A stretch of DNA of 64,000 nt. Source: Micromonospora sp. HM5-17. GTDB taxonomy: Bacteria > Actinomycetota > Actinomycetes > Mycobacteriales > Micromonosporaceae. The stretch's first letter is position 1; each line of letters starts with the position of its first letter. The position numbers and the translations under genes are program-made. The notes below the pieces were generated by a model. The model did no database searches, was not told the origin of the DNA, and was given only the letters and a program-made list of their open reading frames with translations. This document shows, piece after piece, positions 7,160-47,064 of the stretch. Location of the stretch: contig NZ_RJWA01000003.1 of assembly GCF_003762835.1 (NCBI RefSeq), forward strand, positions 806,001 to 870,000, in the 5' to 3' direction.

Positions 7160-7199
7160 CCCGACCAGGGATGTCGGTCGTGGCTGCCAGGATGGAGCC

Positions 7200-32633: not shown

Positions 32634-32645
32634 GGAAACGTTTAC
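32634..32645. promoter_or_regulatory. LacI-family operator 1
   Basis: GGAAACGTTTAC, one mismatch from the perfect palindrome at 32677. The CG-centred AAACGTTT core is the classic LacI/GalR half-site arrangement. It lies just downstream of the candidate promoter. Confidence 0.7.
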
Positions 32646-32669: not shown

Positions 32670-33872
32670 ATGGGTCGTAAACGTTTACAGCCCGCTGCCG
32701 GCCGGCCGACCGTACACACGGTGGCCGCGCGGGCCGGCGTCTCGATCGCCTCGGCCTCGCGCGTCCTCAACGGCGTCGGCGGCAGCCCCGAGACCATCCG
32801 CAAGGTTCGCCAGGCGGCGGCCGAGGTCGGCTACGTGCCGAACGCCATCGCCCGGTCGTTGCAGTCGCAGCGCACGGGCCTGGTCGCGCTCGCGGTCGCC
32901 GACATCGGCAACCCGGTCTACGTGGCCATGATGCGAGCCATCGAGGCCGTGGTCGCCGCCGGCGGCCGACAGCTGCTGGTGCACGCCACGGGCGGCGACG
33001 TCGCCACCGAGATCTCGCTGCTGCGTCGGCTGGCACACCGGTACGTGGACGGCATGATCGTCTCACCGATCCGGATCACCGACAGTCACCTCGAGGCGAT
33101 GGTGGTCAGCCCGGTCCCGGTCGTCGTGGTGGGCCAACTCCCCGACGACGCGCCGGTCGACAACGTCCGTACCGACTCCCGGGCCGGTGTCGCGCTCGCC
33201 GTCGACCACCTGCTCGCGGCCGGACGGCGGCGGATCGGGTTCCTCAACGGTCCGCTGGACACCGTGCCCGGCGCGGCCCGGGACGCCGGGTTCCGGGCCG
33301 CGCTGGCCCGCCACGGCATCCCCGTCGACGAGGATCTCATCGAGATCGGTGACTTCCAGTACGCGGCCGGTCGCGCGGCCGCCGCGCGGCTACTCGCCCG
33401 GGCCGAGCCGGATGCGCTGCTCTGCGCCAACGACCTGATCGCGGTCGGCGCCCTGCACACGCTGCTCAGCGAGGAGCGGCGGGTCCCGCAGGAGGTCGCC
33501 CTGGTCGGCATGGACGACACCGAACTCGCCCAGATGACCTTTCCACAGCTCTCCAGCGTCTCGCTCGGCTCCGCCGACCGGGGACGGCGTGCCGCCGAGC
33601 TGCTGCTGGAACGGATCGCCGACCCCGACCTGCCGCCCCGCCGCGCCCACGTCGCGCCCAGCCTGGTGGTCCGCGCCTCCAGCATCCCCGGCGGCACCCC
33701 GCGACCCCCGGCGCCGGGCCAGCCGACCGCCGTCACCGCGCCGGAGCCGGGCCTCGGGACGTCACCCGCGGTACCGACGGCGGCGGCTCCGATGACGGCC
33801 ATGCCTGCCTCGCCCGCGTCCCCCCGGACGACCAGCACCGCCGGGCTCACTACGGAAGGTGGGACCCGATGA
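32670..33872 (+). CDS. LacI-family transcriptional repressor of catabolic operon
   Basis: 400-residue regulator. HTH at residues about 10-35 (VHTVAARAGVSIASASRVLNG), hinge ARSLQSQRTG, then a periplasmic-binding-like effector domain (VADIGNPVYVAMM, GMIVSPIRI, GRRRIGFLNGPLDT, ALLCANDLIAVGAL, VGMDDTELAQM). A Pro/Ala/Thr-rich tail of about 55 residues follows the domain. ATG 32670 puts the HTH in normal position. The stop overlaps the permease ATG (ATGA), so the repressor is co-transcribed with the operon and autoregulated through the AAACGTTT sites. Confidence 0.92.
   Translation: MGRKRLQPAAGRPTVHTVAARAGVSIASASRVLNGVGGSPETIRKVRQAAAEVGYVPNAIARSLQSQRTGLVALAVADIGNPVYVAMMRAIEAVVAAGGRQLLVHATGGDVATEISLLRRLAHRYVDGMIVSPIRITDSHLEAMVVSPVPVVVVGQLPDDAPVDNVRTDSRAGVALAVDHLLAAGRRRIGFLNGPLDTVPGAARDAGFRAALARHGIPVDEDLIEIGDFQYAAGRAAAARLLARAEPDALLCANDLIAVGALHTLLSEERRVPQEVALVGMDDTELAQMTFPQLSSVSLGSADRGRRAAELLLERIADPDLPPRRAHVAPSLVVRASSIPGGTPRPPAPGQPTAVTAPEPGLGTSPAVPTAAAPMTAMPASPASPRTTSTAGLTTEGGTR
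32677..32688. promoter_or_regulatory. LacI-family operator 2 (inside lacI codons 3-7)
   Basis: GTAAACGTTTAC is a perfect 12-bp palindrome located within the first codons of the repressor gene (Arg-Lys-Arg-Leu). The centre-to-centre distance from operator 1 is 43 bases, about four helical turns, compatible with cooperative binding. Confidence 0.7.
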
Positions 33873-34798
33873 CCACGCTGACCGTACGGCCGGCGGTGGA
33901 CCGCGCCCCCCGGCGTCGGCGCCGGCGCTCCGACCGGGCGACCGTCTACCTGCTGCTGCTCCCGTCGCTGCTGCCGGTCCTCGTGCTCTCCGTCTTCCCA
34001 CTGCTGCGGGGCATCTACCTCGGCTTCACCGACGCCCGGGCCGGCCGGAACGTGGAGATCAGCTTCACCGGGCTAGCCAACTACCGGGAGCTGCTGCACG
34101 ACGAGCTGTTCTGGAGCTCATTCCGGATCGGGCTGCTCTGGGCGTTCTCGGTGACCGTGCTGCAGTTCCTGCTCGCGCTCGGGCTGGCCCTGCTGCTCAA
34201 CCAGCGGCTGCGGTTCCGGGGCCTCGCCCGGGTGCTCGCCGTCGTCCCCTGGGCGATGCCACCGGTGGTGGTCGGCATCCTCTGGCGGCTGGTCTACCAC
34301 CCGGACGCGGGACTGCTCAACGAGTTTCTGTACCGCATCGGTGCGGACGGACTGCGGACCACCTGGCTCGGCGACTTCAGCACCGCGTTGCCCGCCGTGA
34401 TCATCGTCGGGGTCTGGGCCGGGATGCCGCAGACCACCGTCGTACTCCTGGCGGGGTTGCAGAGCGTGCCGCGCGAGCTGCACGAGGCGGCGGCGGTGGA
34501 CGGCGCCGATGCCTGGCAGCGGTTCCGGAGCGTCACCCTGCCGTCGCTGATGCCGGTGATCGTCGCGATCACCTCGCTCGACTTCATCTGGAACTTCAAC
34601 TCGTTCGGCCTGGTGTACGTGCTCACCGCCGGCGGGCCGGGCGGTCGGACCATGCTGCCGATGCTCTTCGCGTACGAGGAGGCGTTCCGGTACGGCGACT
34701 ACGGCTACGCCGCCGCCCTCGGCAACGTGATGGTGGTGATCGTCGTGGCACTACTCGCGGTCTACCTGCGCCGCCGGCTTCGGGAGGCGAACCAATGA
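33869..34798 (+). CDS. ABC sugar-type transporter permease (MalF-like)
   Basis: 309-residue integral membrane subunit with six predicted helices and the ATPase-docking EAA loop ELHEAAAVDGADAWQRFRSVTLPSL split near residues 205-230. N terminus RRRRRRSDRATVYLLLLPSLLPV is typical of the MalF/UgpA branch. Overlaps the LacI stop (ATGA) and its own stop overlaps the next permease (ATGA). It serves as one half of the membrane channel for the binding protein at 35921; no ATPase is in the operon, so a shared MsiK-type ATPase elsewhere is likely. Confidence 0.92.
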   Translation: MTTLTVRPAVDRAPRRRRRRSDRATVYLLLLPSLLPVLVLSVFPLLRGIYLGFTDARAGRNVEISFTGLANYRELLHDELFWSSFRIGLLWAFSVTVLQFLLALGLALLLNQRLRFRGLARVLAVVPWAMPPVVVGILWRLVYHPDAGLLNEFLYRIGADGLRTTWLGDFSTALPAVIIVGVWAGMPQTTVVLLAGLQSVPRELHEAAAVDGADAWQRFRSVTLPSLMPVIVAITSLDFIWNFNSFGLVYVLTAGGPGGRTMLPMLFAYEEAFRYGDYGYAAALGNVMVVIVVALLAVYLRRRLREANQ

Positions 34799-35826
34799 CG
34801 ACCTGGGGACACGACCCGACGATCCGGTCCGGCGGCGCGACGAGCCGGTCGGGTGACACGACGATCGGCCCGGGCGATGTGACGGCCCGGTCCGGCGACG
34901 CCACGACCCGGTCGCGCTTCGGGACGACAGCTCGGGACGGCCACCCGACGACGGGCCCGATCCGGAGCGGGGTGGGTACCGGACGGGCCCGGAAGCGTCG
35001 CCGCGGCCTCGGCACCGGGCTGCAGTACCTCGCACTCGCGGCGTACCTGATCTTCCTGGCGTTTCCGCTCGTGTGGCTCCTCTCCACCTCGTTCAAGCCG
35101 CCGCGCGAGCTGGTCCGGCTGCACCCGACGCTGATCCCGGAGAGCCCCACGCTGGCGAACTTCGTGCAGGCCTTCACCGAGCAGGAACTGGGCCGGGCGG
35201 CCTGGAACAGCCTGCAGGTCTCGCTCGCCTCGGCGGTGCTCACCGTGCTGGTCGCGACGCCCGCGGCGTACGCCCTGGCGCGGTTCCGGACCCGGCTCGG
35301 CACCGTGGCCCTGGGCTGGGTGCTTCTCTCCCAGCTCTTCCCGTTCGTGCTGCTGATCATCCCGATCTTCCTGGTGCTCCGGCAGGTCGGGCTCGCCAAC
35401 ACGCACGCCGGGCTGGTGCTGATCTACGTCGTCTGGGCGCTGCCGTTCGCGCTCTGGATGCTCCAGGGATTCGTCCGGAGCATCCCGCGCGAGCTGGAGG
35501 AGGCGGCGTCGGTCGACGGGGCGACCCGGCTTCAGGCCCTGCGTCGGGTGGTCTTCCCGCTGCTGACCCCGGGCCTCGTCGCGACCGCGGTCTTCGCCTT
35601 CATCTCCGCCTGGAACGAGTTCTTCTTCGCCCTGGTGCTGATCAAGACGCCGGAGCTGGCGACCCTGCCGGTCGCGCTGGCCCGGTTCGTCGGCATCGAG
35701 GGGACCGCCCGGCTCGGCCCGCTGGCGGCCGGATCGCTGCTCGCCACGCTGCCGAGCCTCGTCTTCTTCGCCATCATGCAGCGCCGGCTGGCCTCCGGGT
35801 CACTCGCCGGCGCGGTGAAGGGATGA
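34795..35826 (+). CDS. ABC sugar-type transporter permease (MalG-like) with repeat-rich N terminus
   Basis: 343 residues. The membrane core begins near residue 75 (LQYLALAAYLIFLAFPLVWLL) and has the MalG-type WLLSTSFKP, an EAA loop ELEEAASVDGATRLQALRRVVFPLL and FAFISAWNEFFFALVLI. The first 60 residues are an unusual hydrophilic segment with imperfect repeats of the kind xxRSGDxT/xxRSGGAT (about residues 8-50), predicted to lie in the cytoplasm. ATG 34795 overlaps the previous stop. A start closer to the membrane core (for example GTG near 34971) cannot be excluded. Confidence 0.88.
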   Translation: MTTWGHDPTIRSGGATSRSGDTTIGPGDVTARSGDATTRSRFGTTARDGHPTTGPIRSGVGTGRARKRRRGLGTGLQYLALAAYLIFLAFPLVWLLSTSFKPPRELVRLHPTLIPESPTLANFVQAFTEQELGRAAWNSLQVSLASAVLTVLVATPAAYALARFRTRLGTVALGWVLLSQLFPFVLLIIPIFLVLRQVGLANTHAGLVLIYVVWALPFALWMLQGFVRSIPRELEEAASVDGATRLQALRRVVFPLLTPGLVATAVFAFISAWNEFFFALVLIKTPELATLPVALARFVGIEGTARLGPLAAGSLLATLPSLVFFAIMQRRLASGSLAGAVKG

Positions 35827-35838
35827 CCGCACACGCGC

Positions 35839-35888
35839 AAGGAAGGGCCCCTTCTTCTACCAAAAGCGATAACAGGGGGCCCTTCCTT
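35839..35888. repeat. Palindromic element, copy 1
   Basis: AAGGAAGGGCCCC (35839-35851) pairs perfectly with 35876-35888; the 24-base loop contains CTACCAAAAGCGATA. It lies between the permease and binding-protein genes. The element recurs at 45009-45056 with the same stem and a similar loop. It could act as an attenuator/mRNA stabiliser that raises binding-protein expression, or be a mobile REP-like unit. I recall similar hairpins as common in Micromonospora-type genomes, but this needs a search. Confidence 0.75.
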
Positions 35889-35920
35889 TCACCCCACACA
35901 TACCGAAGGAGGTAGCCCCC

Positions 35921-37210
35921 ATGCCCCATAGATTCACCCGGCGCCGGTTCGTCGGCGCCGCCCTGGCCGGCGCCCTGGCGCTCGGCCCACTCGCCGCGTG
36001 CGGCAGCGACGACGGCGGGTCGGACGGCCCGGTCACTCTGCGCTTCCTCAGCCTCGCCTGGCAGAAGGAGTCGCTCCAGGCGAACAAGGATCTGGTCGCC
36101 AAGTGGAACGCCGAACACCCGGATATCCAGGTCGAGTACGTCCAGGGCGACTGGAACTCCATCCACGACCAGCTGCTGACCTCGTTCGAGGGCGGGGACG
36201 CGCCGGACATCGTCCACTACGAGGCGGCCGCGATCGGCGAGTTCAGCAAGCAGGGCTACCTGGCCGACCTCTCGGGGCTGCTCTCTGACGACTTCAAGGC
36301 CCAGATCGACAAGGGCATCTGGGACACCGTGACCTTCGACGGCAAGGTCACCGGGATCCCGTTCCTGCTGGAGTCGCAGGTCGTGATCGCCAACAAGAAG
36401 CTGCTCGACGACGCCGGCATCCCGGTGCCGCCCGCCGACGGGGGCTGGACCTGGGACGAGTTCCAGGCCAACGCCAAGAAGCTCACCAAGCCGGGCCAGT
36501 ACGGCGTGGCCTGGGCGCTGAAGTCGCCGACGAACCGGGTGATGAACCTGGCGCTGAACTTCGACGGCAAGTACTTCTACACCGAGGGCGGCAAGACCGA
36601 GGTGCGGGTCGGGACCGCCGAGACCGAGGTCCCCAGGCGGATCCACGACATGCTCTACACCGCGAAGTCCGCGGCGCCGGAGGCGCTGGGGATGAGCGGT
36701 GCCGACACCCTGCCGGGCTTCTTCGCCGGCAAGTACGCGATGATCCCGGGCTCGGTCTCGCTGCGCCAGCAGATGGTGGAGCAGGCGCCGGCCGGCTTCG
36801 AGTGGGTGACGCTGCCGCCGATCCGGGGAATCTCGGCCAACCAGGCCGCCAACCCGCAGACGCTGTCGGTCTCCGCCGACTCGAAGCACCAGAAGGAGGC
36901 GGTGCAGTTCCTCGAGTTCTTCCTCAACCCGACGAACATGGCGCAGCTCGCCAAGGGCGACTGGCTGGTGCCGACCGGGAAGCAGGCGAACGAGGAACTG
37001 GTCAAGGCGACCGGTGGCAAGCAGGGCTGGGACGTGGCCGCGGACAGCGTCAAGGACCTGACGGTGGCGCCGTTCCAGATGGTCGACGGCTACCCCGAGT
37101 GGAAGACCAAGTACGCCACCCCGGCGCTCCAGCAGTACTTCGCCAACAAGATCACGCTTGACCAGCTCGCCACGCAGCTGGTCGACGGCGGAAAGCAGGT
37201 CCTGAGGTAA
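35921..37210 (+). CDS. ABC transporter extracellular solute-binding protein (lipoprotein)
   Basis: 429-residue family 1 binding protein. The N terminus has a twin-arginine motif (TRRRFVGAAL) and a lipobox LAAC with Cys near residue 27, so it is probably exported by Tat and lipid-anchored. Blocks include LRFLSLAWQKESLQANKDL, WNAEHPDIQVEYVQGDW, GGDAPDIVHYEAA, GIPFLLESQVVIANKKLL and FFAGKYAMIPGSVS. ATG 35921 has AAGGAGG upstream. The aromatic- and acid-rich ligand face fits a sugar or glycoside, but the ligand is not identifiable. It follows the palindromic element and ends 2 bases before the next gene. Confidence 0.92.
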   Translation: MPHRFTRRRFVGAALAGALALGPLAACGSDDGGSDGPVTLRFLSLAWQKESLQANKDLVAKWNAEHPDIQVEYVQGDWNSIHDQLLTSFEGGDAPDIVHYEAAAIGEFSKQGYLADLSGLLSDDFKAQIDKGIWDTVTFDGKVTGIPFLLESQVVIANKKLLDDAGIPVPPADGGWTWDEFQANAKKLTKPGQYGVAWALKSPTNRVMNLALNFDGKYFYTEGGKTEVRVGTAETEVPRRIHDMLYTAKSAAPEALGMSGADTLPGFFAGKYAMIPGSVSLRQQMVEQAPAGFEWVTLPPIRGISANQAANPQTLSVSADSKHQKEAVQFLEFFLNPTNMAQLAKGDWLVPTGKQANEELVKATGGKQGWDVAADSVKDLTVAPFQMVDGYPEWKTKYATPALQQYFANKITLDQLATQLVDGGKQVLR

Positions 37211-37212
37211 CC

Positions 37213-38391
37213 ATGGAACTCTTGCTCGACAAGTCGGTCGGCTGCCTGGTCGGTGCCGCGGTGGGCGATGCCCTCGGCGGGGCGACGGAGACGGCGCTGC
37301 CCGAGCAGATCCGGGCCCGGTACGGCGGCTGGGTGGAGGGCGTGGTGCCCCCGTTCCACGCCGACTGGGCCACCGCGCGGCCGCTGGCGCCGTACCACAA
37401 GGGCGATGGGCACATCACCGACGACACGTTGATGACCCACGCGCTGGTACGGACGTACCTGCGCAAGCGGGACCACCTCGACGCGTTCGACGTGGCGGAA
37501 CTGCTCGTGCCCGACCTGATCGAGCGGGTGGTCTACCTGCCGGACCTGGAGCGGGAGGGGGTGACCTTCCACCGCCTCGCCGCCGCGGAGCGGTGGCTGG
37601 TCACCCGCCTGCACCACGCGCACGTCGACCCGAGGGAGGGCGGGGTCGGCAACATCGTCAACTGTGGCGCCGCGATGTACATGGCCCCGGTCGGCGTGGT
37701 GAACGCCGGCGACCCGGCCGGCGCGTACGCCGAGGCGGTCGAGATCGCCGGCGCCCACCAGCACAGCTACGGGCGGGAGGCGGCCGCGGTCTTCGCCGCC
37801 GCGGTCGCCGCCGCGATGGCGCCGGGGGCGGGCGTCGGGGACGTGGTCGCCGCCGCCCTCGACCTGGCCCGGGACGGCACCCGGGCCGCGATCGCCGCGG
37901 TGGTCAAGCAGGCCGAGGGGTACGCCGACTGGCGTGACGCGATCGGCCCGCTGCGCGCAGCGGTCGCGCCGTACGACACGGTGGGGGAGGACTACCGCAA
38001 CCCCGGGCTCGGGGCGCGGCGACCGAGCCGGCTGCACGCGATCGAGGAGCTGCCGATCGCGCTCGGGATGCTGGTGGTCGCGAAGGGGAACCTGCGGCAG
38101 GCGGTCCTCGGGGCGGTCAACTACGGCCGGGACGCGGACTCCACCGCCACCATGGCCGGGGCGATCGCCGGGGCGCTCGGCGGCGCGGCGGCGGTGCCGA
38201 CCGAGTGGTCCGAGGCGGTCGCCGAGGCGTCCCGGACCGACCTGGTCGAGCCGGCCCGGCAGCTGGCCGGGGTGGCGGCCGAGATCTTCGCGCTGGATCG
38301 GGAGCGGTTCGCCCGGCGCGCCGAGCGCTTCGCCCGGCTCACGACCCCCGCCGGTCCCGAGGGTGCCGCCGGCGACGACGGTCGGGAGTGA
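37213..38391 (+). CDS. ADP-ribosylglycohydrolase-family protein, paralogue 1
   Basis: 392-residue metal-dependent hydrolase of the DraG/ARH fold. Metal-site motifs are complete: GAAVGDALGGATE, GHITDDTLMTHAL and, near residue 305, YGRDADSTATMAGAIAGALGG. These enzymes cleave N- or O-glycosidic bonds to (ADP-)ribose. Here the neighbours are sugar transport genes and a ribokinase, so the substrate is probably an imported small riboside and not an ADP-ribosylated protein. No signal peptide. ATG 37213, with 2 bases between it and the binding protein stop. Confidence 0.88.
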   Translation: MELLLDKSVGCLVGAAVGDALGGATETALPEQIRARYGGWVEGVVPPFHADWATARPLAPYHKGDGHITDDTLMTHALVRTYLRKRDHLDAFDVAELLVPDLIERVVYLPDLEREGVTFHRLAAAERWLVTRLHHAHVDPREGGVGNIVNCGAAMYMAPVGVVNAGDPAGAYAEAVEIAGAHQHSYGREAAAVFAAAVAAAMAPGAGVGDVVAAALDLARDGTRAAIAAVVKQAEGYADWRDAIGPLRAAVAPYDTVGEDYRNPGLGARRPSRLHAIEELPIALGMLVVAKGNLRQAVLGAVNYGRDADSTATMAGAIAGALGGAAAVPTEWSEAVAEASRTDLVEPARQLAGVAAEIFALDRERFARRAERFARLTTPAGPEGAAGDDGRE

Positions 38392-38395
38392 CGTC

Positions 38396-39778
38396 ATGTC
38401 GAACGGGGTGGGGTCGATGAGGCTGACCTGGGTGCAGCCGGAGGACCTGCTGCCGCACGAGCTGGCGGCCAGCGCGGACGAGGGACGGGACGTCTCGGCG
38501 ATCGCCGCCCGCTGGGCGGCGGCCGGCGGGGCCACCGTACCGCCGGTCAGCGGGGCGTCGCCGGTGCCCGCCGGGCCGGAGCTGCGGGCCCTGGCGGCCG
38601 AGCTGCTCGACGAGTGCGACGCGCTCCCGGAGGTCGACTCGGCGACGGAGCCGCGCTCGCTCGACGCGATCCGGGCGAGCTGGCCGGCGGAGTTCGGGCT
38701 GCCCGTCCGGACACCGGAGCCGGACCGGCTGCACGGCGCCTGGCTCGGCCGGGCCGTCGGCTGCCTGCTCGGCAAGCCGGTGGAGAAGATTCCCCGGGAG
38801 GGGATCCGGGAGATCCTCACCTCGGCGGGGCGCTGGCCGCTGCGGGGCTACTTCACCGCCGCGGGGCTGCCGGCCGAGGTGGCGGCGCGCTGGCCGTGGA
38901 ACCGGCGCAGCGCGTCGACCAGTCTCGCCGAGAACATCGACGGGATGCCGGAGGACGACGACCTCAACTTCGCCCTGCTGGCGCTGCGCGTGCTGGAGAC
39001 CAGGGGTCCGGACCCGACCAGCGCGGACGTCGCCCAGGCGTGGCTGGACTGGCTGCCCGGCGGGCGGGTCTTCACCGCCGAGCGGGTGGCGTACCGGAAC
39101 CTCCTGCTCGGGCTGACGCCGCCGGAGACGGCGCGACGGCACAACCCGTTCCGGGAGTGGATCGGTGCCCAGATCCGTACCGACGTCTACGGCTGGGTCA
39201 ACCCGGGCCGGCCGGACCGGGCCGCGGAGCTGGCGTACCGGGACGCGACGGTGAGCCACGTCCGGTCCGGGGTGTACGGGGCGCTGTGGGTGGCGGCGAT
39301 GAGCGCCGCCGCCGTCGTCGCCCCGGACGTGGCGACGATCCTCGACGTCGGCGAGGCGGTGCTGCCGCCGGAGAGCCGCTTCGCGGCGGCGGTCCGCGAG
39401 GGGCGGGCGCTCGGCGCGGCGGCCACCGACGACGACGGCTGGGAGTCGGTGCTGGACACCCTGCACGCCCGGCACGGGCACCTGCACTGGGTGCACGTGC
39501 GCAACAACGCGGCCCTGGTCGCCGCCGCGCTCGCGTACGGCCGGGGCGACCTGGTCCGCTCGATCTGCGCGGCGGTCAGCGGCGGCTGGGACACGGACTC
39601 GACCGGGGCGACGGTCGGCGCGATCACCGGCGCCCTGACCGGGGCGGCGGGGCTTCCGGCCGCGTGGACCGCGCCGCTGCGCGGCCGGCTGGCCAGCAGC
39701 ATCGCCGGGTTCGACGGCGTCGGCTTCGTGGAGCTGGCCGAGCGGACTCGACGACTGATCAGGGAGGGAGAGGTCTGA
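38396..39778 (+). CDS. ADP-ribosylglycohydrolase-family protein, paralogue 2
   Basis: 460 residues, the second DraG/ARH-fold protein in the operon. Its first motif reads GRAVGCLLGKPVEK where others have GDALG, losing that Asp. EDDDLNFALLALR replaces TDDT-type residues, while GGWDTDSTGATVGAITGAL keeps the C-terminal metal Asp pair. An N-terminal helical region of about 100 residues (LTWVQPEDLLPHEL onwards) is extra. ATG 38396 lies 4 bases after the previous stop; ATG 38417 is an alternative. The stop overlaps the ribokinase ATG (TGATG). The pair may form a heteromer or act on different bonds. Confidence 0.85.
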   Translation: MSNGVGSMRLTWVQPEDLLPHELAASADEGRDVSAIAARWAAAGGATVPPVSGASPVPAGPELRALAAELLDECDALPEVDSATEPRSLDAIRASWPAEFGLPVRTPEPDRLHGAWLGRAVGCLLGKPVEKIPREGIREILTSAGRWPLRGYFTAAGLPAEVAARWPWNRRSASTSLAENIDGMPEDDDLNFALLALRVLETRGPDPTSADVAQAWLDWLPGGRVFTAERVAYRNLLLGLTPPETARRHNPFREWIGAQIRTDVYGWVNPGRPDRAAELAYRDATVSHVRSGVYGALWVAAMSAAAVVAPDVATILDVGEAVLPPESRFAAAVREGRALGAAATDDDGWESVLDTLHARHGHLHWVHVRNNAALVAAALAYGRGDLVRSICAAVSGGWDTDSTGATVGAITGALTGAAGLPAAWTAPLRGRLASSIAGFDGVGFVELAERTRRLIREGEV

Positions 39779-40740
39779 TGGGTGCCCGGGTAGTCGTGGT
39801 CGGCAGCACCAACCTGGACCTGGTGGTGACCACACCGACCCTGCCCCGACCGGGGGAGACCGTGCTGGGTAACGGCTTCAGCACCGTACCCGGGGGCAAG
39901 GGGGCGAACCAGGCGGTCGCCGCGGCCCGGGCGGGGGCCCGGTGCGCGTTCGTCGGCGCGGTGGGCCAGGACGGCTTCGCCGAGCAGCTGCGGGCCAGTC
40001 TGGTGGCGGCGGGAGTGGACGTACGGCGGCTGCGCAGCGTCCCCGGCCCCTCCGGGGTGGCGCTGATCGCGGTCGACGCCGACGCGGAGAACCTGATCGT
40101 GGTGGCGCCGGGGGCGAACGCCGCGCTGACCAGCCTCGACGACCCGGACCGGGCGGCGGTCGAGGCGGCGGACGTGCTGCTCTGCCAGCTGGAGGTGCCG
40201 ATCGAGGCGGTCGTGCAGGCCGCCGGCTGGGCGCGGGCCGCCGGCACCACGGTCGTGCTCAACGCCGCACCGGCCCGGCGGCTGCCGGCCGAGCTGCTGG
40301 ACGTGGTCGACCTGCTGGTGGTGAACCAGGGTGAGGCGGCGGTGGTCGCCGGAACCGGCGACGACGGCGGCGAGCCGGACGCGTTGCTGGACGCGCTGCT
40401 CCGGCTGGTGCCCCGGGTCGTGGTGACGCTCGGCCCCCGAGGGGTGCGGTACGCCGACCGGTGTGGACTGCGGCTCGAGGTGCCGGCGCCGGTGGTCGAG
40501 GCGGTCGACACCACGGCGGCCGGGGACGCCTTCACCGGCGCCCTGGCGGTGGCCTGGGCGGAACGGGGCGGTCCGGTCGAGGCGGCGGCGGTGACGGCGG
40601 CACTGGGCTGGGCATGCGCGGCGGGTGCCGCCTGTGCGCGGCGCCCCGGTGCCTCCACCGCCCTCCCGGACCGCGCCGAGATCGACGACCTCTACGCGCT
40701 GACCTACTCCGGCGGCGGGCGGACCGAGGAGGCGGCGTGA
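39778..40740 (+). CDS. rbsK: Ribokinase (PfkB family), copy 2
   Basis: 320-residue sugar kinase with VVVGSTNLDLVV, VPGGKGANQAVAAARAG, VDLLVVNQGEAAVVAG and DTTAAGDAFTGALAVAW (catalytic Asp). The N-terminal GSTNLDLV block marks ribokinase more than adenosine or fructose kinase. ATG 39778 overlaps the previous stop (TGATG), so it is translationally coupled to the ADP-ribosylglycohydrolase gene. It would phosphorylate ribose released by the two hydrolases, feeding ribose 5-phosphate to the pentose phosphate pathway. Confidence 0.9.
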   Translation: MGARVVVVGSTNLDLVVTTPTLPRPGETVLGNGFSTVPGGKGANQAVAAARAGARCAFVGAVGQDGFAEQLRASLVAAGVDVRRLRSVPGPSGVALIAVDADAENLIVVAPGANAALTSLDDPDRAAVEAADVLLCQLEVPIEAVVQAAGWARAAGTTVVLNAAPARRLPAELLDVVDLLVVNQGEAAVVAGTGDDGGEPDALLDALLRLVPRVVVTLGPRGVRYADRCGLRLEVPAPVVEAVDTTAAGDAFTGALAVAWAERGGPVEAAAVTAALGWACAAGAACARRPGASTALPDRAEIDDLYALTYSGGGRTEEAA

Positions 40741-40840
40741 TCGGCGCCACCGCGGGATCGCGAAGAGCCGTCGGTGCGGGTCGGCCCGGCGGGCCGGGTT
40801 CTCCGACGCGGGGCGACGACGAGCGGAGCGGGGAGTCAGC

Positions 40841-42817
40841 ATGACCGTCAATCCGTACGTGCCGAGGCCGATCGACCTGCCCACGGCGGTGCCGCTGGAG
40901 CCGGGGGCCGACCTGTCGGTGCTGGACGAGGCGAAGATCTTCGCCGCTCCCGACGACCCGGCGGAGTGGCCGGCCTGGCGGGACCGGCTCACCCGGTGGC
41001 GGGCCGAGGCCCGGCGGCGCCTGGGCTACGACGACCGGCACTACGCCGAGATCTCCGGGGACTGTTTCAGCGTCTGCCTGGCGTGGCTCTGGGACGAGAC
41101 CCTGTACGACCACGAGCGCGGCGTCTTCACCGTCGACGCCTTCCTCGACGCGGCCGAGCGAGACTTCGGCGGCTTCGACGGGGTGGTGCTCTGGCACGCG
41201 TACCCGGTGATCGGGCTCGACGACCGTAACCAGTTCGACTACTACCGCCAGGTCCCGGAGCTGCCCGAGGTGGTGCGTGCCCTCCAGGCGCGCGGGGTGC
41301 GGGTCTTCGTCGACTACAACCCGTGGGACGTCGGCACCCGACGGGCGACGCGTCCGGACGCCGAGGAGGTGGCGGCGCTGGTCGGCTGGCTGGGGGTGGA
41401 CGGGGTCTTCCTCGACACCCTCAAGGAGGGGGCGGAGGAACTGCGGAAGACCCTCGACGCCGTCCGGCCGGGTCTGGTGCTGGAGGGCGAGTCGCGGGTG
41501 CCGCTGGCCCGGATCGCCGACCACGCGATGTCCTGGGCCCAGTGGTTCGCCGACTCGCCGGTGCCGGGGGTGCTGCGGGCGAAGTGGTTCGAACGCCGGC
41601 ACATGCTGCACCACACCCGGCGCTGGCACCGGAGCCACCTGGACGAGCTGCACTCGGCCTGGCTGAACGGGGTCGGGGTGCTGGTGTGGGAGAGCGTCTT
41701 CGGGGTCTGGGTCGGCTGGAACGACCGGGACCGGGCGCTGCTGCGGGCGATGCGCCGGGTGCAGCGCGAGCGCGCCGCGTGGTTGCGCGCCGAGGAGTGG
41801 GTCCCGCTCGCCGACCACGTGCCGGGGACCCGCGTGTACGCCTCCCGCTGGACCCACGACGGCGTACCACTGTGGACGGTCGTCAACCGCGGCGAGGCGT
41901 ACGACGGGCCGTGGCTGCTCACCGACGAGCGCCCGGGACACCGGTGGTACGACCTCGTCACCGGTGCCGAGCTGACCGCCACCCGGACCGACGACGGCCG
42001 GGTGACGGTCGGCGGGACGCTGCCGGCCGGGGGGATCGCCGCCGTCCTCGCCACCGTCGAGGAGGTGACGCCGGCCCGGCACGCGTCGCCGGACGGCGAC
42101 CCGAACTTCCCGGCCCGGGCGGCGGTCCGGATCCCCGCCCCGGTGGTGCGCCGGGGCAGCGTGCCGCCCGGGATGGTCGCGGTCGACGGCGGACGGCGGG
42201 AACTGCTGGTCCGCTACCGGTTGCGCGAGACCGGCCTGTACGGCGAGGCGCCGTACGTCGACGAGTGGAAGCCGCTGCCACCGAGACTGCACCAGCCGGT
42301 GACGCTGCGCCGCACCGTTCACCTGGGACGGTTCGCCATCGCCGAGCGGGAGGTGACCAACGCGGAGTTCGCCGCGTTCGTCCGGGCCACCGGCTACCGT
42401 CCGGTCCGCGCCGAGCGCTGGCCCTGGGGCGACGGCGGCGCCGGCTGGGGGCCGCCCGACGCGCCCGCCACCCACGTCGAGCTGGCCGACGCGCGGGCGT
42501 ACGCGGCCTGGGCCGGGCTGCGGCTGCCGACCGAGGACGAGTGGCAGGTCGCCGCCGAGGCGGGGCTGCTGCGCCGGGCCGAGCCGCTGGTCTGGAACCT
42601 GACCGAGAGCGAGCACACCGACGGGCGTACCCGGTTCCTGATCCTGAAGGGCGGTGCGGCGTACCGGGCCGAGGGGTCGGACTGGTACCTCGACGGCGGC
42701 CCGCAGCCCCCGGAGGTGTCGGTGAAGCTGTTGCCGCTCGGTGCCGGCCTGACCCGTTCGCCGTCCATCGGCTTCCGCTGTGCTGTCGACCTGGGGGAAG
42801 GCTCCAACGACCGGTGA
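40841..42817 (+). CDS. TIM-barrel glycosidase-like / SUMF1-like fusion protein
   Basis: 658 residues. The N-terminal two-thirds look like a glycoside hydrolase-type TIM barrel: GVVLWHAYPVIGLDDRNQF, RVFVDYNPWDVGT and VFLDTLKEGAEE (possible acid/nucleophile Asp), with a following beta domain to about residue 430. The C terminus (about 435-655) is a formylglycine-generating-enzyme-like SUMF1 domain: IAEREVTNAEFAAFV, ADARAYAAWAGLRLPTEDEW and IGFRCAVDL. The two cysteines needed for formylglycine generation are absent, so it is probably a carbohydrate or cofactor-binding domain. No signal peptide. ATG 40841. It starts 100 bases after the ribokinase stop. Confidence 0.75.
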   Translation: MTVNPYVPRPIDLPTAVPLEPGADLSVLDEAKIFAAPDDPAEWPAWRDRLTRWRAEARRRLGYDDRHYAEISGDCFSVCLAWLWDETLYDHERGVFTVDAFLDAAERDFGGFDGVVLWHAYPVIGLDDRNQFDYYRQVPELPEVVRALQARGVRVFVDYNPWDVGTRRATRPDAEEVAALVGWLGVDGVFLDTLKEGAEELRKTLDAVRPGLVLEGESRVPLARIADHAMSWAQWFADSPVPGVLRAKWFERRHMLHHTRRWHRSHLDELHSAWLNGVGVLVWESVFGVWVGWNDRDRALLRAMRRVQRERAAWLRAEEWVPLADHVPGTRVYASRWTHDGVPLWTVVNRGEAYDGPWLLTDERPGHRWYDLVTGAELTATRTDDGRVTVGGTLPAGGIAAVLATVEEVTPARHASPDGDPNFPARAAVRIPAPVVRRGSVPPGMVAVDGGRRELLVRYRLRETGLYGEAPYVDEWKPLPPRLHQPVTLRRTVHLGRFAIAEREVTNAEFAAFVRATGYRPVRAERWPWGDGGAGWGPPDAPATHVELADARAYAAWAGLRLPTEDEWQVAAEAGLLRRAEPLVWNLTESEHTDGRTRFLILKGGAAYRAEGSDWYLDGGPQPPEVSVKLLPLGAGLTRSPSIGFRCAVDLGEGSNDR

Positions 42818-42833
42818 TCTCGAAGGAGTCTCG

Positions 42834-45002
42834 ATGAGAAGATCATGGCGGCTCGGCTCCGTCGCAGCCGTACTCCTGCTCGCCGCCGGCCTGGCCGGTG
42901 CCGTGCCCGGCGGCGCGGCGGCGAGCCGGGAGCGGCTCGGCACGCTGACCACGGCGAGCGCGCACTCGGCGGCGCTCGGCGGGCCGATCGACTACACCGT
43001 CTACCTGCCGTACGGCTACACCGACCGGCGTAACGCCGAGGTCCGGTACCCCGTGCTCTACCTGCTGCACGGCCGGGGCGACACGATGTCGGCGTGGACC
43101 CGGGTCAAGGCCGACCTGGACCGGATGATCGCCGCCGGCGAGCTGCCGCCGGTGATCGCGATCCTTCCGGACGCGCCGTGGAGCAGCCGGGGAAGCTGGT
43201 ACGTCGACTCGGCGTACACCGGTGCCGACGACCCGGGTCGCCCGGTCGAGACCGCGCTCACCCGCGACCTCGTCTCCGCCGTGGACGCCCGCTACCGGAC
43301 GGCCGCGCACCGGGGCGCCCGGCTGGTCGGCGGCTACTCGATGGGCGGGTTCGGTGCGCTCCGCTACGCCCTCGCCCACCCGGACCTCTTCGCGAACGCG
43401 CTGGTCCTCAGCCCGGCCGTCTACCGTCCGCTGCCGCCGTCCGACTCGTCGGCCCGGGAGTTCGGCGGGTTCGGCTCCGGCGACCAGCGCTTCTCCGACG
43501 AGGTCTACCAGCGGCTCAACTACCCGGCCCTGCTGCCGACGCTCGACCCCGATCTGCCGATCCGGATGTATATCGCGGTCGGCGACGACGAGTGGGCCAA
43601 CCCGAACCCGGAGGACGCCGTACACGACCTGGACTACGAGGCGGCGACGCTCTACAACGCGGTCCGTCGCTCGGACGCGATCACCGCACAGTTCCGGGTG
43701 GTCGACGGTGGCCACGACTGGGACGTCTGGCGGCCGTCCTTCGTGGACGGGCTCCGTGAGCTGGCGCCGACGCTGCGCGCCACCCCACCGGCCGGGATTC
43801 CCGGGCCGGCGTACGGCACCGACGGCACCGACTGGGCAGGTGGCGTGGCGGCGACCCCGGACGGCGGTGCCGTCCTCGGCTACGCGGCCTCCGGGTCGGT
43901 CGCCGGACAGCCGTACGCGGGCGGGCTGGACGCCGTCCTGACCCGGCTCGGCCCGGACCGGCGTACCGTCCGGTGGACGGCGCAGTTCGGCACCCCGGCC
44001 AACGACCGGCTCTACGGGGTCGCGCCGCTGCCCGACGGCGGGGTCCTGACCGCCGGCTACACCCGGGGCGACCTCGACGGCGCCCACCCGGGCAACCCCG
44101 CCGACGACGCCTTCGTGGCGAAGCTGACCGGTGCCGGGGAACGCGCCTGGTTGACCCAGGTCGGCGACCCGGCCAGGGCGGACCGGTTCTACGCGGTCGC
44201 GGCCGCCCCGGACGGCGGCGCCTACGTCGCCGGATACACCAGTGGCGCGTACGCCGGCACCAGCGCCGGGGACAAGGACGCCGTCCTGGCCCGGATCACC
44301 CCGGACGGGGCGGTCGCCTGGAGTCGGCAGTTCGGCGGCGCCGGCGAGGACAAGGCGTACGCGGTGGCGGCCGACGCCTCCGGCGTCTACGTCGTCGGCA
44401 GCACCTCGGCCGGGATGCCCGGCACGAGTCACGTCGGCGGGGTGGACGGCTGGCTGGCCCGGTTCACACCCGACGGCACCCGGCGGTGGCTGGTCGCCGA
44501 GGGCGGCCCCGGTGACGACCTGCTGACCGGGGTCGCGGTGACCGAGACCGGGGTGGTCGCCACCGGCGGCACCCGGGGGGACGCGACGGCCGGCGGCAGC
44601 GACGCGCTCACCGTCGCGTACGACGCGACCGGTCGGCAGCGGTGGCGGAGCCTCGCCGGTGGACGGGGCGACGACGCCGGAGCCGAGGTGCTGGCGCTGC
44701 CCGGCGGCGAGGTGGCGGTGGTGTGCTTCACCCGCAGCGCGCTCGGGGTGCCGGCCGGGGGCGCCGACGTGTTGACCCTCCGCTACGACCGGCGGGGCAG
44801 GCAACTCCTCGCCGCCCAGTACGGCACCGCCCGCGACGACGCGGTGGACGCCTTCGGCGAGGAGAACGTCTACGCCGCCCGGGCCGCCGACGGGACGCTG
44901 CTGGTCAGCGGGCTCACCACCGGCGGCCTGGCCGACGGCGCCGTGCTCGGCAACGGCGACGTCTTCCTCGCCCCGGTCGACCCGACGAGGGGGCTGCCGT
45001 GA
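42834..45002 (+). CDS. Secreted esterase-D-like hydrolase fused to beta-propeller repeats
   Basis: 722 residues. Signal peptide MRRSWRLGSVAAVLLLAAG to about residue 35. Then an alpha/beta hydrolase of the putative esterase family: YPVLYLLHGRGD, GGYSMGGFGALRYAL (nucleophile Ser) and DGGHDWDVW (His). From about residue 330 to the end come SBBP-type beta-propeller repeats, for example AVAAAPDGGAYVAGYTSG and AVTETGVVATGGTRGD, roughly six to seven blades. It would cleave an ester outside the cell, releasing substrate for import. ATG 42834 with GAAGGAG 6 bases upstream. Its stop overlaps the CoA-transferase GTG by 4 bases. Confidence 0.82.
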   Translation: MRRSWRLGSVAAVLLLAAGLAGAVPGGAAASRERLGTLTTASAHSAALGGPIDYTVYLPYGYTDRRNAEVRYPVLYLLHGRGDTMSAWTRVKADLDRMIAAGELPPVIAILPDAPWSSRGSWYVDSAYTGADDPGRPVETALTRDLVSAVDARYRTAAHRGARLVGGYSMGGFGALRYALAHPDLFANALVLSPAVYRPLPPSDSSAREFGGFGSGDQRFSDEVYQRLNYPALLPTLDPDLPIRMYIAVGDDEWANPNPEDAVHDLDYEAATLYNAVRRSDAITAQFRVVDGGHDWDVWRPSFVDGLRELAPTLRATPPAGIPGPAYGTDGTDWAGGVAATPDGGAVLGYAASGSVAGQPYAGGLDAVLTRLGPDRRTVRWTAQFGTPANDRLYGVAPLPDGGVLTAGYTRGDLDGAHPGNPADDAFVAKLTGAGERAWLTQVGDPARADRFYAVAAAPDGGAYVAGYTSGAYAGTSAGDKDAVLARITPDGAVAWSRQFGGAGEDKAYAVAADASGVYVVGSTSAGMPGTSHVGGVDGWLARFTPDGTRRWLVAEGGPGDDLLTGVAVTETGVVATGGTRGDATAGGSDALTVAYDATGRQRWRSLAGGRGDDAGAEVLALPGGEVAVVCFTRSALGVPAGGADVLTLRYDRRGRQLLAAQYGTARDDAVDAFGEENVYAARAADGTLLVSGLTTGGLADGAVLGNGDVFLAPVDPTRGLP

Positions 45003-46249
45003 CTGGTGAGGAAGGGCCCCTTGTACAACGAAAAACGATAGAAAGGGGCCCTTCCTTGCCCCAACCAGCTGCGCTGGACGGCGTGAAGGTGGTCGAGCTG
45101 GCGACCCTCTTCGCCGGGCCGCTCGCCACCGCCTTCCTCGGCGACTTCGGCGCCGACGTCGTCAAGGTGGAGCATCCGACCAAACCCGACCCGTCCCGGG
45201 GACACGGGCCGGCGAAGGACGGCGTCGGACTCTGGTGGAAGGTGCTCGGTCGCAACAAGCGGACCATCACCGCGAACCTCTCCGACCCGGCCGGGGCCGA
45301 GGTGTTGCGCCGGTTGGTCGCCGACGCCGACGTCCTGGTGGAGAACTTCCGACCCGGGACGCTGGAGCGCTGGGGGATCGGACCGGCGGAGCTGCACGCG
45401 GTCAACCCCCGGCTGGTGATCGCCCGGATCAGCGGCTTCGGCCAGGTCGGCCCGTACGCCCGGCGGCCCGGCTTCGGCACCCTCGCCGAGGCGATGAGCG
45501 GCTTCGCCGCCGCGACCGGCGAGCCGGACGGCCCGCCGACCCTGCCGCCGTTCGGGCTCGCCGACTCGGTGACCGCGCTCGCCACGGCGTACGCGGTCAT
45601 GCTGGCGCTCCGCTCCCGGGATGCCACCGGGGTGGGGCAGGTCATCGACCTGGCGATCATCGAGCCGATCATGGCGATGCTCGGTCCGCAGATCACCTGG
45701 TACGACCAGCTCGGTTACCTCCAGCCCCGGCTCGGCAACCGGTCGAACAACAACGCGCCCCGGAACACGTACCGGTGCGCGGACGGGCGCTGGGTGGCGA
45801 TCTCGACCAGCGCCCAGAGCATCGCCGAACGGGTGATGCGGCTGGTCGGGCGGCCGGAGCTGCTCGACGAGCCGTGGTTCGCCACCGGCAGCGGCCGGGC
45901 CGCGCACGCCGATGTCCTCGACGCCGCGGTGAGCGCCTGGGTGGCGGCCCGGAACCGCGACGAGGTGGTCGCCGCGTTCGAGCAGGCGGAGGCGGCGGTG
46001 GCGCCGGTCTACGACGTCCGGGACATCCTCGCCGACCCGCAGTACGCCGCGCTCGGCACCGTGGTCACGGTGCCGGACGACGACCTCGGCCCGGTGCGGA
46101 TGCAGAACGTGCCGTTCCGGATGTCGGCGACGCCGGGGCGGATCCGGCACACCGGGCGGCGGCACGGGCAGGACACCGACGCGGTGCTGGCCGAGCTCGG
46201 CTACACCGCCGACGAGATCGCGGCGCTCCGCGCCCGGGGGGTGGTCTGA
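44999..46249 (+). CDS. Family III CoA-transferase (CaiB/BaiF type)
   Basis: Up to 416 residues. From LDGVKVVELATLFAGPLATAFLGDFGADVVKVEHP onward (about residues 25-60) it is a clean family III member, with RNKRTITANLSDPAGAEVLRRLV, ENFRPGTLERWG and ISGFGQVGPY. At the position of the formyl-CoA transferase nucleophile it has AIIEPI, a Glu, as in many CaiB-like proteins. The start is uncertain: GTG 44999 overlaps the previous stop (GTGA) but translates the palindrome; TTG 45056 would begin right after it. CoA is probably transferred to a carboxylic acid aglycone. Confidence 0.88.
   Translation: MTGEEGPLVQRKTIERGPSLPQPAALDGVKVVELATLFAGPLATAFLGDFGADVVKVEHPTKPDPSRGHGPAKDGVGLWWKVLGRNKRTITANLSDPAGAEVLRRLVADADVLVENFRPGTLERWGIGPAELHAVNPRLVIARISGFGQVGPYARRPGFGTLAEAMSGFAAATGEPDGPPTLPPFGLADSVTALATAYAVMLALRSRDATGVGQVIDLAIIEPIMAMLGPQITWYDQLGYLQPRLGNRSNNNAPRNTYRCADGRWVAISTSAQSIAERVMRLVGRPELLDEPWFATGSGRAAHADVLDAAVSAWVAARNRDEVVAAFEQAEAAVAPVYDVRDILADPQYAALGTVVTVPDDDLGPVRMQNVPFRMSATPGRIRHTGRRHGQDTDAVLAELGYTADEIAALRARGVV
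45009..45056. repeat. Palindromic element, copy 2, at 5' end of CoA-transferase frame
   Basis: AGGAAGGGCCCCTT (45009-45022) pairs perfectly with 45043-45056. The loop GTACAACGAAAAACGATAGA matches copy 1 (35839) at most positions of ACnAAAAnCGATA. It lies directly after the upstream stop and within the reading frame of the CoA-transferase if GTG 44999 is the start. In-frame translation gives EEGPLVQRKTIERGPSLPQ, which is not conserved-looking. Confidence 0.75.
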
Positions 46250-47064
46250 TGCTCCTCACCTGGCTGTACGTGCCGGGAGACCGGCCGGACCGGTTCGGCA
46301 AGGCGGTCGACTCCGGCGCCGACGCGGTCATCCTCGACCTGGAGGACGCGGTGGTGGCGGCACGCAAGGCGTACGCCCGGGAGGCGGTCGCCGAGTTCGT
46401 CGCCACCCCGCACCGGGTGCCGGTCTTCGTCCGGGTCAACGAGCTGACCGGTCCGGACGTCGGCGCCGACCTGGACGCGGTCGCCGGGGCGCCCGGGCTG
46501 GCCGGGCTGCGCCTGCCGAAGGTGGAGTCCCCGGAGGCGGTCCGGGCGGTCGCCGAGCGGACGTCCGCGCCGCTGGACCTGCTGGTCGAGTCGGCGCTCG
46601 GCGTCGAGCGGGCGTACGAGATCGCGACCGCGCATCCGGCGGTGGCCTCGCTCGGGCTCGGCGAGGCCGACCTCCGCTCGGACCTCGGGGTGACCGCCGA
46701 GGAGGGGCTGACCTGGGTCCGGGGGCGGATCGTCGTCGCCGCCCGGGCCGCCGGGCTGCCGCCGCCGGCGATGCCGGTGTACGCCAACGTCACGGACCTC
46801 GCCGGGCTCGCCGAGTCGTGTGCGCGGGGGCGGCAGCTCGGCTTCGTCGGCCGGACCGCGATCCACCCCCGGCAGCTTCCGGTGATCGTGGAGGCGTTCC
46901 GGCCCTCCGAGGCGGAGGTCCTGCGGGCCCGGGAACTGCTGGCCGCGGTGGCCGAGGCCGAGACCCGGGACACGGGCACGGTGGTGTTGCCCGACGGCCG
47001 CTTCGCCGACCGGGCCATGGTCGCCGCCGCCCGCCGCACCGTCGACCTGGCCGAACGCTACTGA
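46249..47064 (+). CDS. HpcH/HpaI aldolase / CitE-like CoA-ester lyase
   Basis: 271 residues, a citrate-lyase-beta-like TIM barrel. Motifs: LYVPGDRPDRFGKA, DAVILDLEDAVVAARKAYAREAV (metal-binding Glu/Asp), VFVRVNE and GLRLPKVESPEAVRAV. Such enzymes cleave or form C-C bonds in 3-hydroxyacyl- or malyl-CoA-type esters. ATG 46249 overlaps the CoA-transferase stop (TGATG), so the acid is likely activated to a CoA ester and then split. It closes the operon; no strong terminator is obvious in the next 400 bases. Confidence 0.85.
   Translation: MLLTWLYVPGDRPDRFGKAVDSGADAVILDLEDAVVAARKAYAREAVAEFVATPHRVPVFVRVNELTGPDVGADLDAVAGAPGLAGLRLPKVESPEAVRAVAERTSAPLDLLVESALGVERAYEIATAHPAVASLGLGEADLRSDLGVTAEEGLTWVRGRIVVAARAAGLPPPAMPVYANVTDLAGLAESCARGRQLGFVGRTAIHPRQLPVIVEAFRPSEAEVLRARELLAAVAEAETRDTGTVVLPDGRFADRAMVAAARRTVDLAERY

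What the first reader, a model, noticed from the sequence alone, without database searches (positions are those of the whole stretch)
32670..47064. Putative riboside-utilisation operon built around two ADP-ribosylglycohydrolases
Seen: eleven collinear genes (LacI, two permeases, binding protein, two ADP-ribosylglycohydrolase-fold proteins, ribokinase, TIM-barrel/SUMF1 fusion, secreted esterase-propeller, family III CoA-transferase, CitE-like lyase). Most junctions overlap or have gaps under about 20 bases; the larger gaps are 94 bases (with a hairpin) and 100 bases. Known: ADP-ribosylglycohydrolases release ribose moieties and ribokinase phosphorylates free ribose. Inference: the pathway imports a ribosylated compound, frees ribose, and processes an acidic aglycone as a CoA ester. 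I know of no description of this gene set.
Basis: partly seen in the sequence, partly recalled or inferred. Interest (0 to 1): 0.75.

Follow-up and report, generated by a model that had tools for sequence, protein, structure and literature searches.

The report
Conserved ribose-conjugate breakdown operon
Many actinobacteria share a conserved run of neighbouring genes that probably imports an unidentified ribose-bearing compound, clips off the ribose and breaks down an attached acid; it matters because enzymes best known for removing ADP-ribose from proteins seem to work here as ordinary food-digesting enzymes.

Summary
It is no chance neighbourhood: of 80 loci found with its second ADP-ribosylglycohydrolase (ARH) gene, 48, from 27 named genera, hold all nine core genes (LacI, two permeases, binding protein, two ARHs, ribokinase, family III CoA-transferase, CitE). 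In a class-wide draw of 197 genomes, all 34 with the first ARH gene carry the CoA-transferase orthologue, 32 of them within 7 kb. LacI-type operator sites lie at the LacI start in 66 of 69 loci. Candidate catalytic residues of both ARHs, kinase, CoA-transferase and CitE are conserved. Best reading: a catabolic operon for an imported, probably alpha-ribofuranosyl, conjugate; ARHs free ribose, ribokinase phosphorylates it, and the CoA-transferase/CitE pair activates and cleaves a malate-type hydroxydicarboxylate. The substrate, and the assignment of ribose and acid to one molecule, are inferred. In nine Nonomuraea genomes the CoA pair sits apart beside its own regulator gene, so the halves are linked but separable. 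Transporter-ARH-kinase triads are already known (E. coli yegTUV, staphylococcal SERP2216-2218); the CoA arm is the new element.

The parts
32634..32645 (.). upstream LacI-type operator GGAAACGTTTAC
   Evidence: only two matches in 64 kb, 0.10 expected; site(s) at the LacI start in 66 of 69 loci
32677..32688 (.). second operator GTAAACGTTTAC, 43 bases downstream of the first; inside the first codons if LacI starts at 32670
32670..33872 (+). LacI-family repressor
   Evidence: Pfam; NCBIfam best RbsR-like, 187 bits, below cut-off
33869..34798 (+). ABC permease (MalF-like; the class name CUT1 is recalled)
34795..35826 (+). ABC permease (MalG-like)
35840..35887 (.). dispersed palindromic repeat, not part of the system
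35921..37210 (+). extracellular solute-binding protein (MalE type), lipoprotein by my reading of the N-terminus
37213..38391 (+). ARH1: ADP-ribosylglycohydrolase-fold hydrolase with E26, T69-D70-D71, D307, D309
38396..39778 (+). ARH2: second ADP-ribosylglycohydrolase-fold protein, EDD in place of TDD
39778..40740 (+). ribokinase (PfkB)
40841..42817 (+). TIM-barrel glycosidase-like domain fused to an FGE/SUMF1-fold domain without conserved Cys
42834..45002 (+). esterase with beta-propeller repeats, secreted by my reading of the N-terminus (optional member)
   Evidence: called in 20 of 80 loci
45009..45056 (.). second copy of the dispersed repeat, in frame at the 5' end of the CoA-transferase gene
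44999..46249 (+). family III CoA-transferase, catalytic Asp189 (numbered from 44999)
46249..47064 (+). CitE-like acyl-CoA lyase (nearest RipC/citramalyl-CoA lyase and CitE models, below cut-off)

Best explanation
A LacI-controlled catabolic operon for a small ribosylated conjugate. The binding protein and permeases import it (no ATPase gene lies in the operon; a shared one is assumed). The esterase and the TIM-SUMF1 protein, optional in relatives, trim it. Two ARH-fold hydrolases, up to four in relatives, cleave ribofuranosyl bonds, by analogy with animal ARH1/ARH3 at alpha-anomeric C1. Ribokinase phosphorylates the ribose. The family III CoA-transferase activates a released malate/citramalate-type hydroxydicarboxylic acid, and the CitE-like lyase splits it into an acyl-CoA and a 2-oxoacid. 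Shown by computation: conserved gene set, operator, folds, conserved candidate catalytic residues, co-occurrence of the sugar and CoA arms. Inferred: ribose as the sugar, alpha linkage, class of the acid, and that sugar and acid come from one molecule.
For: 80 ARH2-seeded loci: ARH1 called in 78, binding protein 69, ribokinase 68, CoA-transferase 65, CitE 63, TIM-SUMF1 47, esterase 20 (in the 62 with long flanks 61, 54, 52, 55, 54, 39, 18). All nine core genes in 48 of 80, from 27 named genera; the CoA-transferase lies downstream on the same strand in 65 of 65. Class draw of 197 genomes: ARH1 in 34, CoA-transferase in 48, both in 34 (Fisher p about 3e-27 ignoring kinship); 32 of 34 within 7 kb on one strand, two on different contigs; CitE in 38, all within 5 kb of the CoA-transferase. 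Operator. ARH1 model resembles DraG, MJ1187 and ARH3; conserved Glu/Asp (ARH3 metal ligands, PMC8141533 passages). [quoted passage not shown] Ribokinase. A Sphingopyxis plasmid groups ribokinase, TIM-SUMF1, a GH127-family gene and a CoA-transferase without ARH: one example.
Against: No substrate or activity was tested. 12 of 80 loci lack a ribokinase call and 7 of 8 Streptomycetaceae loci lack the binding-protein and permease genes within the held flanks. 15 of 80 loci lack a CoA-transferase call. In nine Nonomuraea genomes the CoA-transferase/CitE pair is separate, with a regulator gene beside it and no operator match. In the careful tree the ARH-linked CoA-transferases are not one clean clade (4 changes of label). 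CUT1 importers usually carry oligosaccharides or glycosides rather than nucleosides (recalled). No hydratase or dehydrogenase is in the operon, so the acid must already be a hydroxydicarboxylate. The ARH2 metal site departs from TDD, and only 35 of 72 extra ARH paralogues matched both metal-site patterns. The kinase misses the ribokinase equivalog cut-off.
Confidence: 0.5

Rival explanations
1. Two linked but chemically independent halves: the ABC-ARH-ribokinase part degrades ribosides, while the CoA-transferase/CitE pair degrades a free hydroxydicarboxylate that occurs in the same niche.
For: In nine Nonomuraea genomes the pair is a two-gene unit elsewhere with a regulator gene beside it. Of the 13 fetched CoA-transferase regions without ARH1, 7 hold both a cyclase-type and an MmgE/PrpD gene, and 8 a hydantoinase-like amidohydrolase. 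Rhizobial, Deinococcus and Mycolicibacterium ARH operons show no match to the pair in the fetched stretches (tblastn).
Against: 34 of 34 ARH1 genomes in the class draw carry the CoA-transferase orthologue; it lies in line downstream of ARH2 in 65 of 80 loci, usually with overlapping reading frames. Of the 15 loci without a CoA-transferase call I searched the genomes of 12, and all 12 have a match, fragmentary in Enemella. Ten regions were fetched: nine (all Nonomuraea) group with ARH-linked sequences on a branch of support 94/94, just under the tree program's mark, and one (Sphaerimonospora) does not.
Confidence: 0.25
2. The sugar is not ribose: the ARH-fold enzymes act as general furanosidases or glycosidases on a plant or microbial oligosaccharide or glycoside ester, and the PfkB kinase handles a ribose-like sugar.
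For: Maltose-type importer, a TIM domain resembling GH13 and GH29 enzymes, an esterase, up to four ARH genes per locus, GH127 instead of ARH in the Sphingopyxis cluster, kinase below the ribokinase equivalog cut-off.
Against: All 12 PDB matches of the kinase at E up to 1e-30 are ribokinases and its candidate active-site residues are invariant in 71 of 71; the ARH1 and ARH3 substrates shown in PMC9738213 (passages) carry a ribofuranosyl unit at the cleaved bond.
Confidence: 0.17
3. Salvage of NAD or ADP-ribose breakdown products, or reversal of protein ADP-ribosylation, as the family name suggests.
For: ARH fold with the ADP-ribosylhydrolase-type Glu/Asp residues. A NUDIX-domain gene is annotated once, about 6 kb from ARH1, on the Pseudochrobactrum plasmid.
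Against: No ADP-ribosyltransferase, NUDIX or nicotinamide gene is among the eleven genes or among the recurrent neighbour clusters that I annotated (most neighbours were not annotated). A sugar importer and the CoA pair have no evident role in it. ARH2 matches the DraG and Tri1 models only weakly.
Confidence: 0.06

Closest known systems
E. coli yegTUV with GgaR (YegW)
   Same: Transporter, ADP-ribosylglycohydrolase-family protein and putative sugar kinase in one operon under one repressor (PMC10819704 passages).
   Different: MFS nucleoside-type transporter, GntR regulator, ADP-glucose as proposed effector, one ARH, no CoA-transferase or CitE in the operon.
Staphylococcal SCC region SERP2216-2218
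   Same: ADP-ribosylglycohydrolase, permease and ribokinase side by side (PMC3637587 passages).
   Different: Purine/allantoin-type permease; one ARH; no CoA arm in the listed region.
Rhizobial and Deinococcus plasmid operons (LacI-permeases-binding protein-ARH)
   Same: LacI, two permeases, binding protein and ARH genes in the same order; ribokinase in L117 and L121.
   Different: Own UgpC-type ATPase in the rhizobial ones, a longer ARH of about 690-700 residues in L115-L117 and L121, no match to CoA-transferase/CitE in the fetched stretch.
DraG / ARH1 / ARH3 ADP-ribosylhydrolases
   Same: Fold and family-type Glu/Asp motifs.
   Different: Genomic context is sugar catabolism; ARH2 has EDD for TDD.
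Itaconate (rip) and malate-type CoA-transferase/lyase pathways
   Same: Family III CoA-transferase plus CitE-like lyase; RipC is the best NCBIfam match of the lyase.
   Different: No hydratase; scores well below the equivalog cut-offs.

Membership tests
ARH/DraG-type ADP-ribosylglycohydrolase | Pfam PF03747 above cut-off | tested here: met
   162.6 and 170.5 bits against a cut-off of 26.2
ARH/DraG-type ADP-ribosylglycohydrolase | two-metal site (T/S)DD ... DxD and a catalytic Glu | tested here: inconclusive
   ARH1 has E26, T69, D70, D71, D307, D309; ARH2 keeps a Glu and the Asp residues but has E188 for Thr (numbered from 38390). Equivalence to ARH3 D77, D78, D314, D316 rests on motif and fold; that of E26 to ARH3 E41 is recalled; no residue alignment to ARH3 was made
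ARH/DraG-type ADP-ribosylglycohydrolase | hydrolysis of ADP-ribosyl substrates | not testable with these tools
   needs an enzyme assay
Ribokinase | ribose-site and catalytic residues | tested here: met
   D15, G40, G41, N45, E140, D245, D251 (numbered from 39775) invariant in 71 of 71; roles assigned from recall; all 12 PDB matches at E up to 1e-30 are ribokinases
Ribokinase | NCBIfam equivalog cut-off TIGR02152 | tested here: not met
   262.2 bits against 299.65, so ribokinase-like but not called an equivalog
Family III CoA-transferase | PF02515 and catalytic Asp | tested here: met
   411.7 bits; Asp189 aligns with the YfdW Asp that I recall as Asp169; D in 81 of 82, gap in 1
CitE-like acyl-CoA lyase | metal ligands Glu and Asp | tested here: met
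   E115 and D142 (numbered from 46246) in 74 of 74; role of the residues recalled
Itaconate degradation (rip) pathway | equivalog score and an itaconyl-CoA hydratase | tested here: not met
   RipC 155 bits against a cut-off of 375; no hydratase among the eleven genes
Formylglycine-generating enzyme (SUMF1) | conserved catalytic Cys pair | tested here: not met
   no invariant or nearly invariant Cys in the 25-row alignment; requirement recalled
yegTUV-like ARH-kinase operon | transporter, ARH and PfkB kinase under one repressor | tested here: met
   transporter and regulator classes differ; control by the repressor inferred from the operator

The most novel reading that the evidence does not exclude
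ADP-ribosylglycohydrolase-fold proteins form a large, overlooked class of intracellular furanosidases for small-molecule nutrition, and this operon defines a new catabolic pathway in which an imported ribosyl conjugate of a hydroxydicarboxylic acid is split by two to four ARHs, the ribose going to ribose 5-phosphate and the acid to an acyl-CoA plus a 2-oxoacid through a dedicated CoA-transferase/CitE pair.
Probability: 0.35. Interest if true: 0.75.

Novelty: new variant of a known kind. Interest (0 to 1): 0.57.

Why it matters
Many bacterial ARH-family proteins have no known substrate (recalled) and are named after protein de-ADP-ribosylation. A strongly conserved operon that ties them to a sugar importer, ribokinase and a CoA-dependent C-C cleavage pair gives a concrete, testable setting: find the ligand of the binding protein, and an ARH activity and a missing nutrient may follow. 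It could also explain the recurring ARH-kinase-transporter triads (E. coli yegTUV, staphylococcal SCC, rhizobial plasmids).

Tried and rejected
Literature: ten searches. Those on ARH plus ribokinase, CoA-transferase/citrate lyase, glycosidase/sugar kinase, Streptomyces operons, riboside terms and PfkB/catabolism gave no listing whose title or abstract start describes this gene set. Several were loose term matches with more papers than listed; of all listed papers I read only passages of four (PMC10819704, PMC3637587, PMC8141533, PMC9738213); subscription papers are not held. Searches were yegU/yegV, itaconate and ARH3/alpha-NAD searches.

Considered and rejected: chance neighbourhood; regulatory hairpin in the 94-base gap (a dispersed repeat; the exact arm motif is in 2 of 160 fetched loci, L004 of this genome and L027 of a relative); active formylglycine-generating enzyme; internal promoters (no sigma-70-type match, weak evidence in this organism); downstream P450 as a member (seen near few loci).

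Aglycones thought about without evidence and left open: itaconate, citramalate, malate, 3-hydroxy-3-methylglutarate, methanopterin-type ribosides, apiosides.

The first crude ORF caller chose many antisense frames and was replaced by a codon-usage caller; counts come from the latter and may miss genes (for example L093 has a CoA-transferase match on the other strand that one search does not name). Rows dropped: the tree used 63 of 82 locus CoA-transferases (near copies and fragments left out), one search used 37 of 82 plus 10 in trans; structure alignments used the window plus 24 of 49 TIM-SUMF1 and plus 23 of 82 ARH1. Of 14 genomes with CoA-transferase but no ARH1, 13 regions were fetched (G199 was not). 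L044's operator was not counted as near because its LacI start was called too early. In the trees L136 (genome G269) was labelled ARH although its ARH genes lie on another contig. One search rechecked the distances first read by eye.
Full report
Observation. The window belongs to a 6.17 Mb genome. LacI and the two permeases overlap by four bases, the binding protein follows after 94 bases, ARH1 two bases later, ARH2 and the kinase almost without gaps, the TIM-SUMF1 protein after 100 bases, the esterase after 16, and the CoA-transferase and CitE with overlapping frames. Two LacI-type palindromes, GGAAACGTTTAC at 32634 and GTAAACGTTTAC at 32677, are the only matches in the window with up to two mismatches (0.10 expected).

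The hairpin. The stem-loop in the 94-base gap is one copy of a dispersed palindrome; a strict pattern, which that copy itself misses, finds 27 copies of 48 bases in the genome and none of the control pattern. A second copy at 45009-45056 lies in frame in the 5' end of the CoA-transferase gene if that starts at 44999. None of the 13 relatives printed has either copy at these places. It is an inserted repeat and not part of the system.

Is it a unit? A scan of genome contigs with ARH2 returned 80 loci, the best of at least 525 relatives, so the sample is seeded and rich in Micromonosporaceae (24 of 80). With a codon-usage gene caller, ARH1 was found in 78 of 80, the binding protein in 69, ribokinase in 68, the CoA-transferase in 65, CitE in 63, TIM-SUMF1 in 47 and the esterase in 20; 33 loci carry separate extra ARH genes and 3 a fused pair (ARH identity of representatives). 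Nine core genes (all but TIM-SUMF1 and esterase) are together in 48 of 80, from 27 named genera and 9 families; the CoA-transferase, where called, is always downstream of ARH2 on its strand, at most 5.2 kb away. Median gaps are -4 to 4 bases for most neighbouring pairs, 34 before the binding protein and 91 before ARH1, where extra ARH genes can intervene. An operator of the same type lies at the LacI start in 66 of 69 loci with a LacI gene.

Unseeded co-occurrence. In one draw of 197 genomes of the class, the CoA-transferase orthologue (E up to 1e-120) is in 48, ARH1 (1e-50) in 34, CitE (1e-45) in 38 and TIM-SUMF1 (1e-60) in 12. All 34 ARH1 genomes have the CoA-transferase (Fisher p about 3e-27, which ignores kinship). 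32 of 34 lie within 7 kb on one strand and two (G269, G279) on different contigs; all 38 CitE matches lie within 5 kb of the CoA-transferase, 37 on its strand. In G316 CitE was below threshold but is seen by tblastn next to the CoA-transferase.

Results against strict unity. Fifteen of the 80 loci lack a CoA-transferase call. I searched the genomes of twelve of them: all twelve have a match, in Enemella only fragments. I fetched ten regions. In nine, all Nonomuraea, the CoA-transferase and CitE form a two-gene unit with the same kind of gene divergent beside it, GntR/FCD in the one annotated, and no operator match. In the careful tree these nine group with ARH-linked sequences on a branch of support 94/94, while the tenth (Sphaerimonospora) falls outside; the ARH label needs four changes there and two in the quick tree, and several deep branches are unresolved. 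Of 48 CoA-transferase genomes, 14 have no ARH1 match. In the 13 of these that I fetched, 7 hold both a cyclase-type and an MmgE/PrpD gene, 8 a hydantoinase-like amidohydrolase, 5 an IclR-type cluster, 5 a fumarate-reductase-like flavoprotein and 3 an Asp/Glu-racemase-like protein (family names from representatives; counts). The pair thus looks like an acid-degrading module recruited into the ARH operon.

Are the enzymes competent? ARH1: E26 (81 of 82, a gap in one), T69, D70, D71, D307 and D309 (82 of 82) are conserved, and a predicted model (pLDDT 86, pTM 0.89) matches DraG, MJ1187 and ARH3. In human ARH3 the metal-coordinating residues include D77, D78, D314 and D316 (PMC8141533, passages); I matched them by motif and fold, not by a residue alignment, and the part of the Glu is recalled. 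ARH2 keeps the Glu and the Asp residues but has Glu for the first Thr in 83 of 84. Kinase: the residues that I recall as the E. coli ribose and catalytic site are invariant in 71 of 71, and all 12 PDB hits at E up to 1e-30 are ribokinases, although it scores below the ribokinase equivalog cut-off. CoA-transferase: Asp189 aligns with an Asp of YfdW that I recall as the catalytic one and is present in 81 of 82 with a gap in one. CitE: E115 and D142 in 74 of 74. TIM-SUMF1: the model (pLDDT 76, pTM 0.80) resembles GH13 amylases and GH29 fucosidases in the barrel and EgtB/FGE in the C-terminal domain; D192 and E217 are invariant and might be catalytic, but E217 lies in a low-confidence stretch; no conserved Cys supports formylglycine-generating activity.

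Mechanism. [quoted passage not shown] The simplest reading is therefore import of an alpha-ribofuranosyl conjugate, hydrolysis by the ARHs, phosphorylation of ribose, and CoA activation and C-C cleavage of a hydroxydicarboxylate. That CitE-type lyases split such CoA esters is family knowledge (recalled). Nothing here identifies the acid or proves that both products come from one compound.

Independent support and analogues. A Sphingopyxis plasmid groups ribokinase, TIM-SUMF1, a GH127 furanosidase-family gene and a family III CoA-transferase (33 percent identical), with a PEP-mutase/isocitrate-lyase family gene nearby on the other strand: one example, but with ARH and CitE seemingly replaced. 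Rhizobial, Deinococcus and Mycolicibacterium plasmids carry LacI-importer-ARH operons, some with ribokinase, without a match to the CoA pair in the fetched stretch. E. coli yegTUV (PMC10819704, passages) and staphylococcal SERP2216-2218 (PMC3637587, passages) are known ARH-kinase-transporter triads.

Verdict. The pathway reading is plausible and now better supported on gene linkage, but the substrate is unknown. It is a new variant of a known kind of ARH-kinase catabolic operon.

Noticed in passing
35840-35887 and 45009-45056: Dispersed 48-base palindromic repeat (AGGAAGGGCCCCTT ... AAGGGGCCCTTCCT), 27 strict copies in the genome; 48 is a multiple of three and one copy lies in frame in the 5' end of the CoA-transferase gene, like a palindromic element that inserts into coding sequence.
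   Followed up: partly
30950-31858: A second ribokinase-like gene just upstream of the operon, separated from it by a small gene that I named YccF-like from recall; seen at the same place in L035 and L081.
   Followed up: partly
L133, L127, L130, L126, L132, L134, L123: Recurrent actinobacterial cluster around a CoA-transferase/CitE pair: cyclase, MmgE/PrpD (up to two), hydantoinase-like amidohydrolase, and in some IclR, a fumarate-reductase-like flavoprotein and an Asp/Glu-racemase-like protein; might be a cyclic imide or hydantoin acid pathway.
   Followed up: partly
L119 (Sphingopyxis plasmid) 2327-8379: Ribokinase, TIM-SUMF1, GH127-family protein and CoA-transferase side by side without ARH; possible parallel version of the pathway.
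   Followed up: partly
L068, L096, L108: Two extra ARH domains fused in one protein in front of ARH1, separate genes in most relatives that have them; only 35 of 72 unfused extra ARH paralogues matched both metal-site patterns.
   Followed up: no
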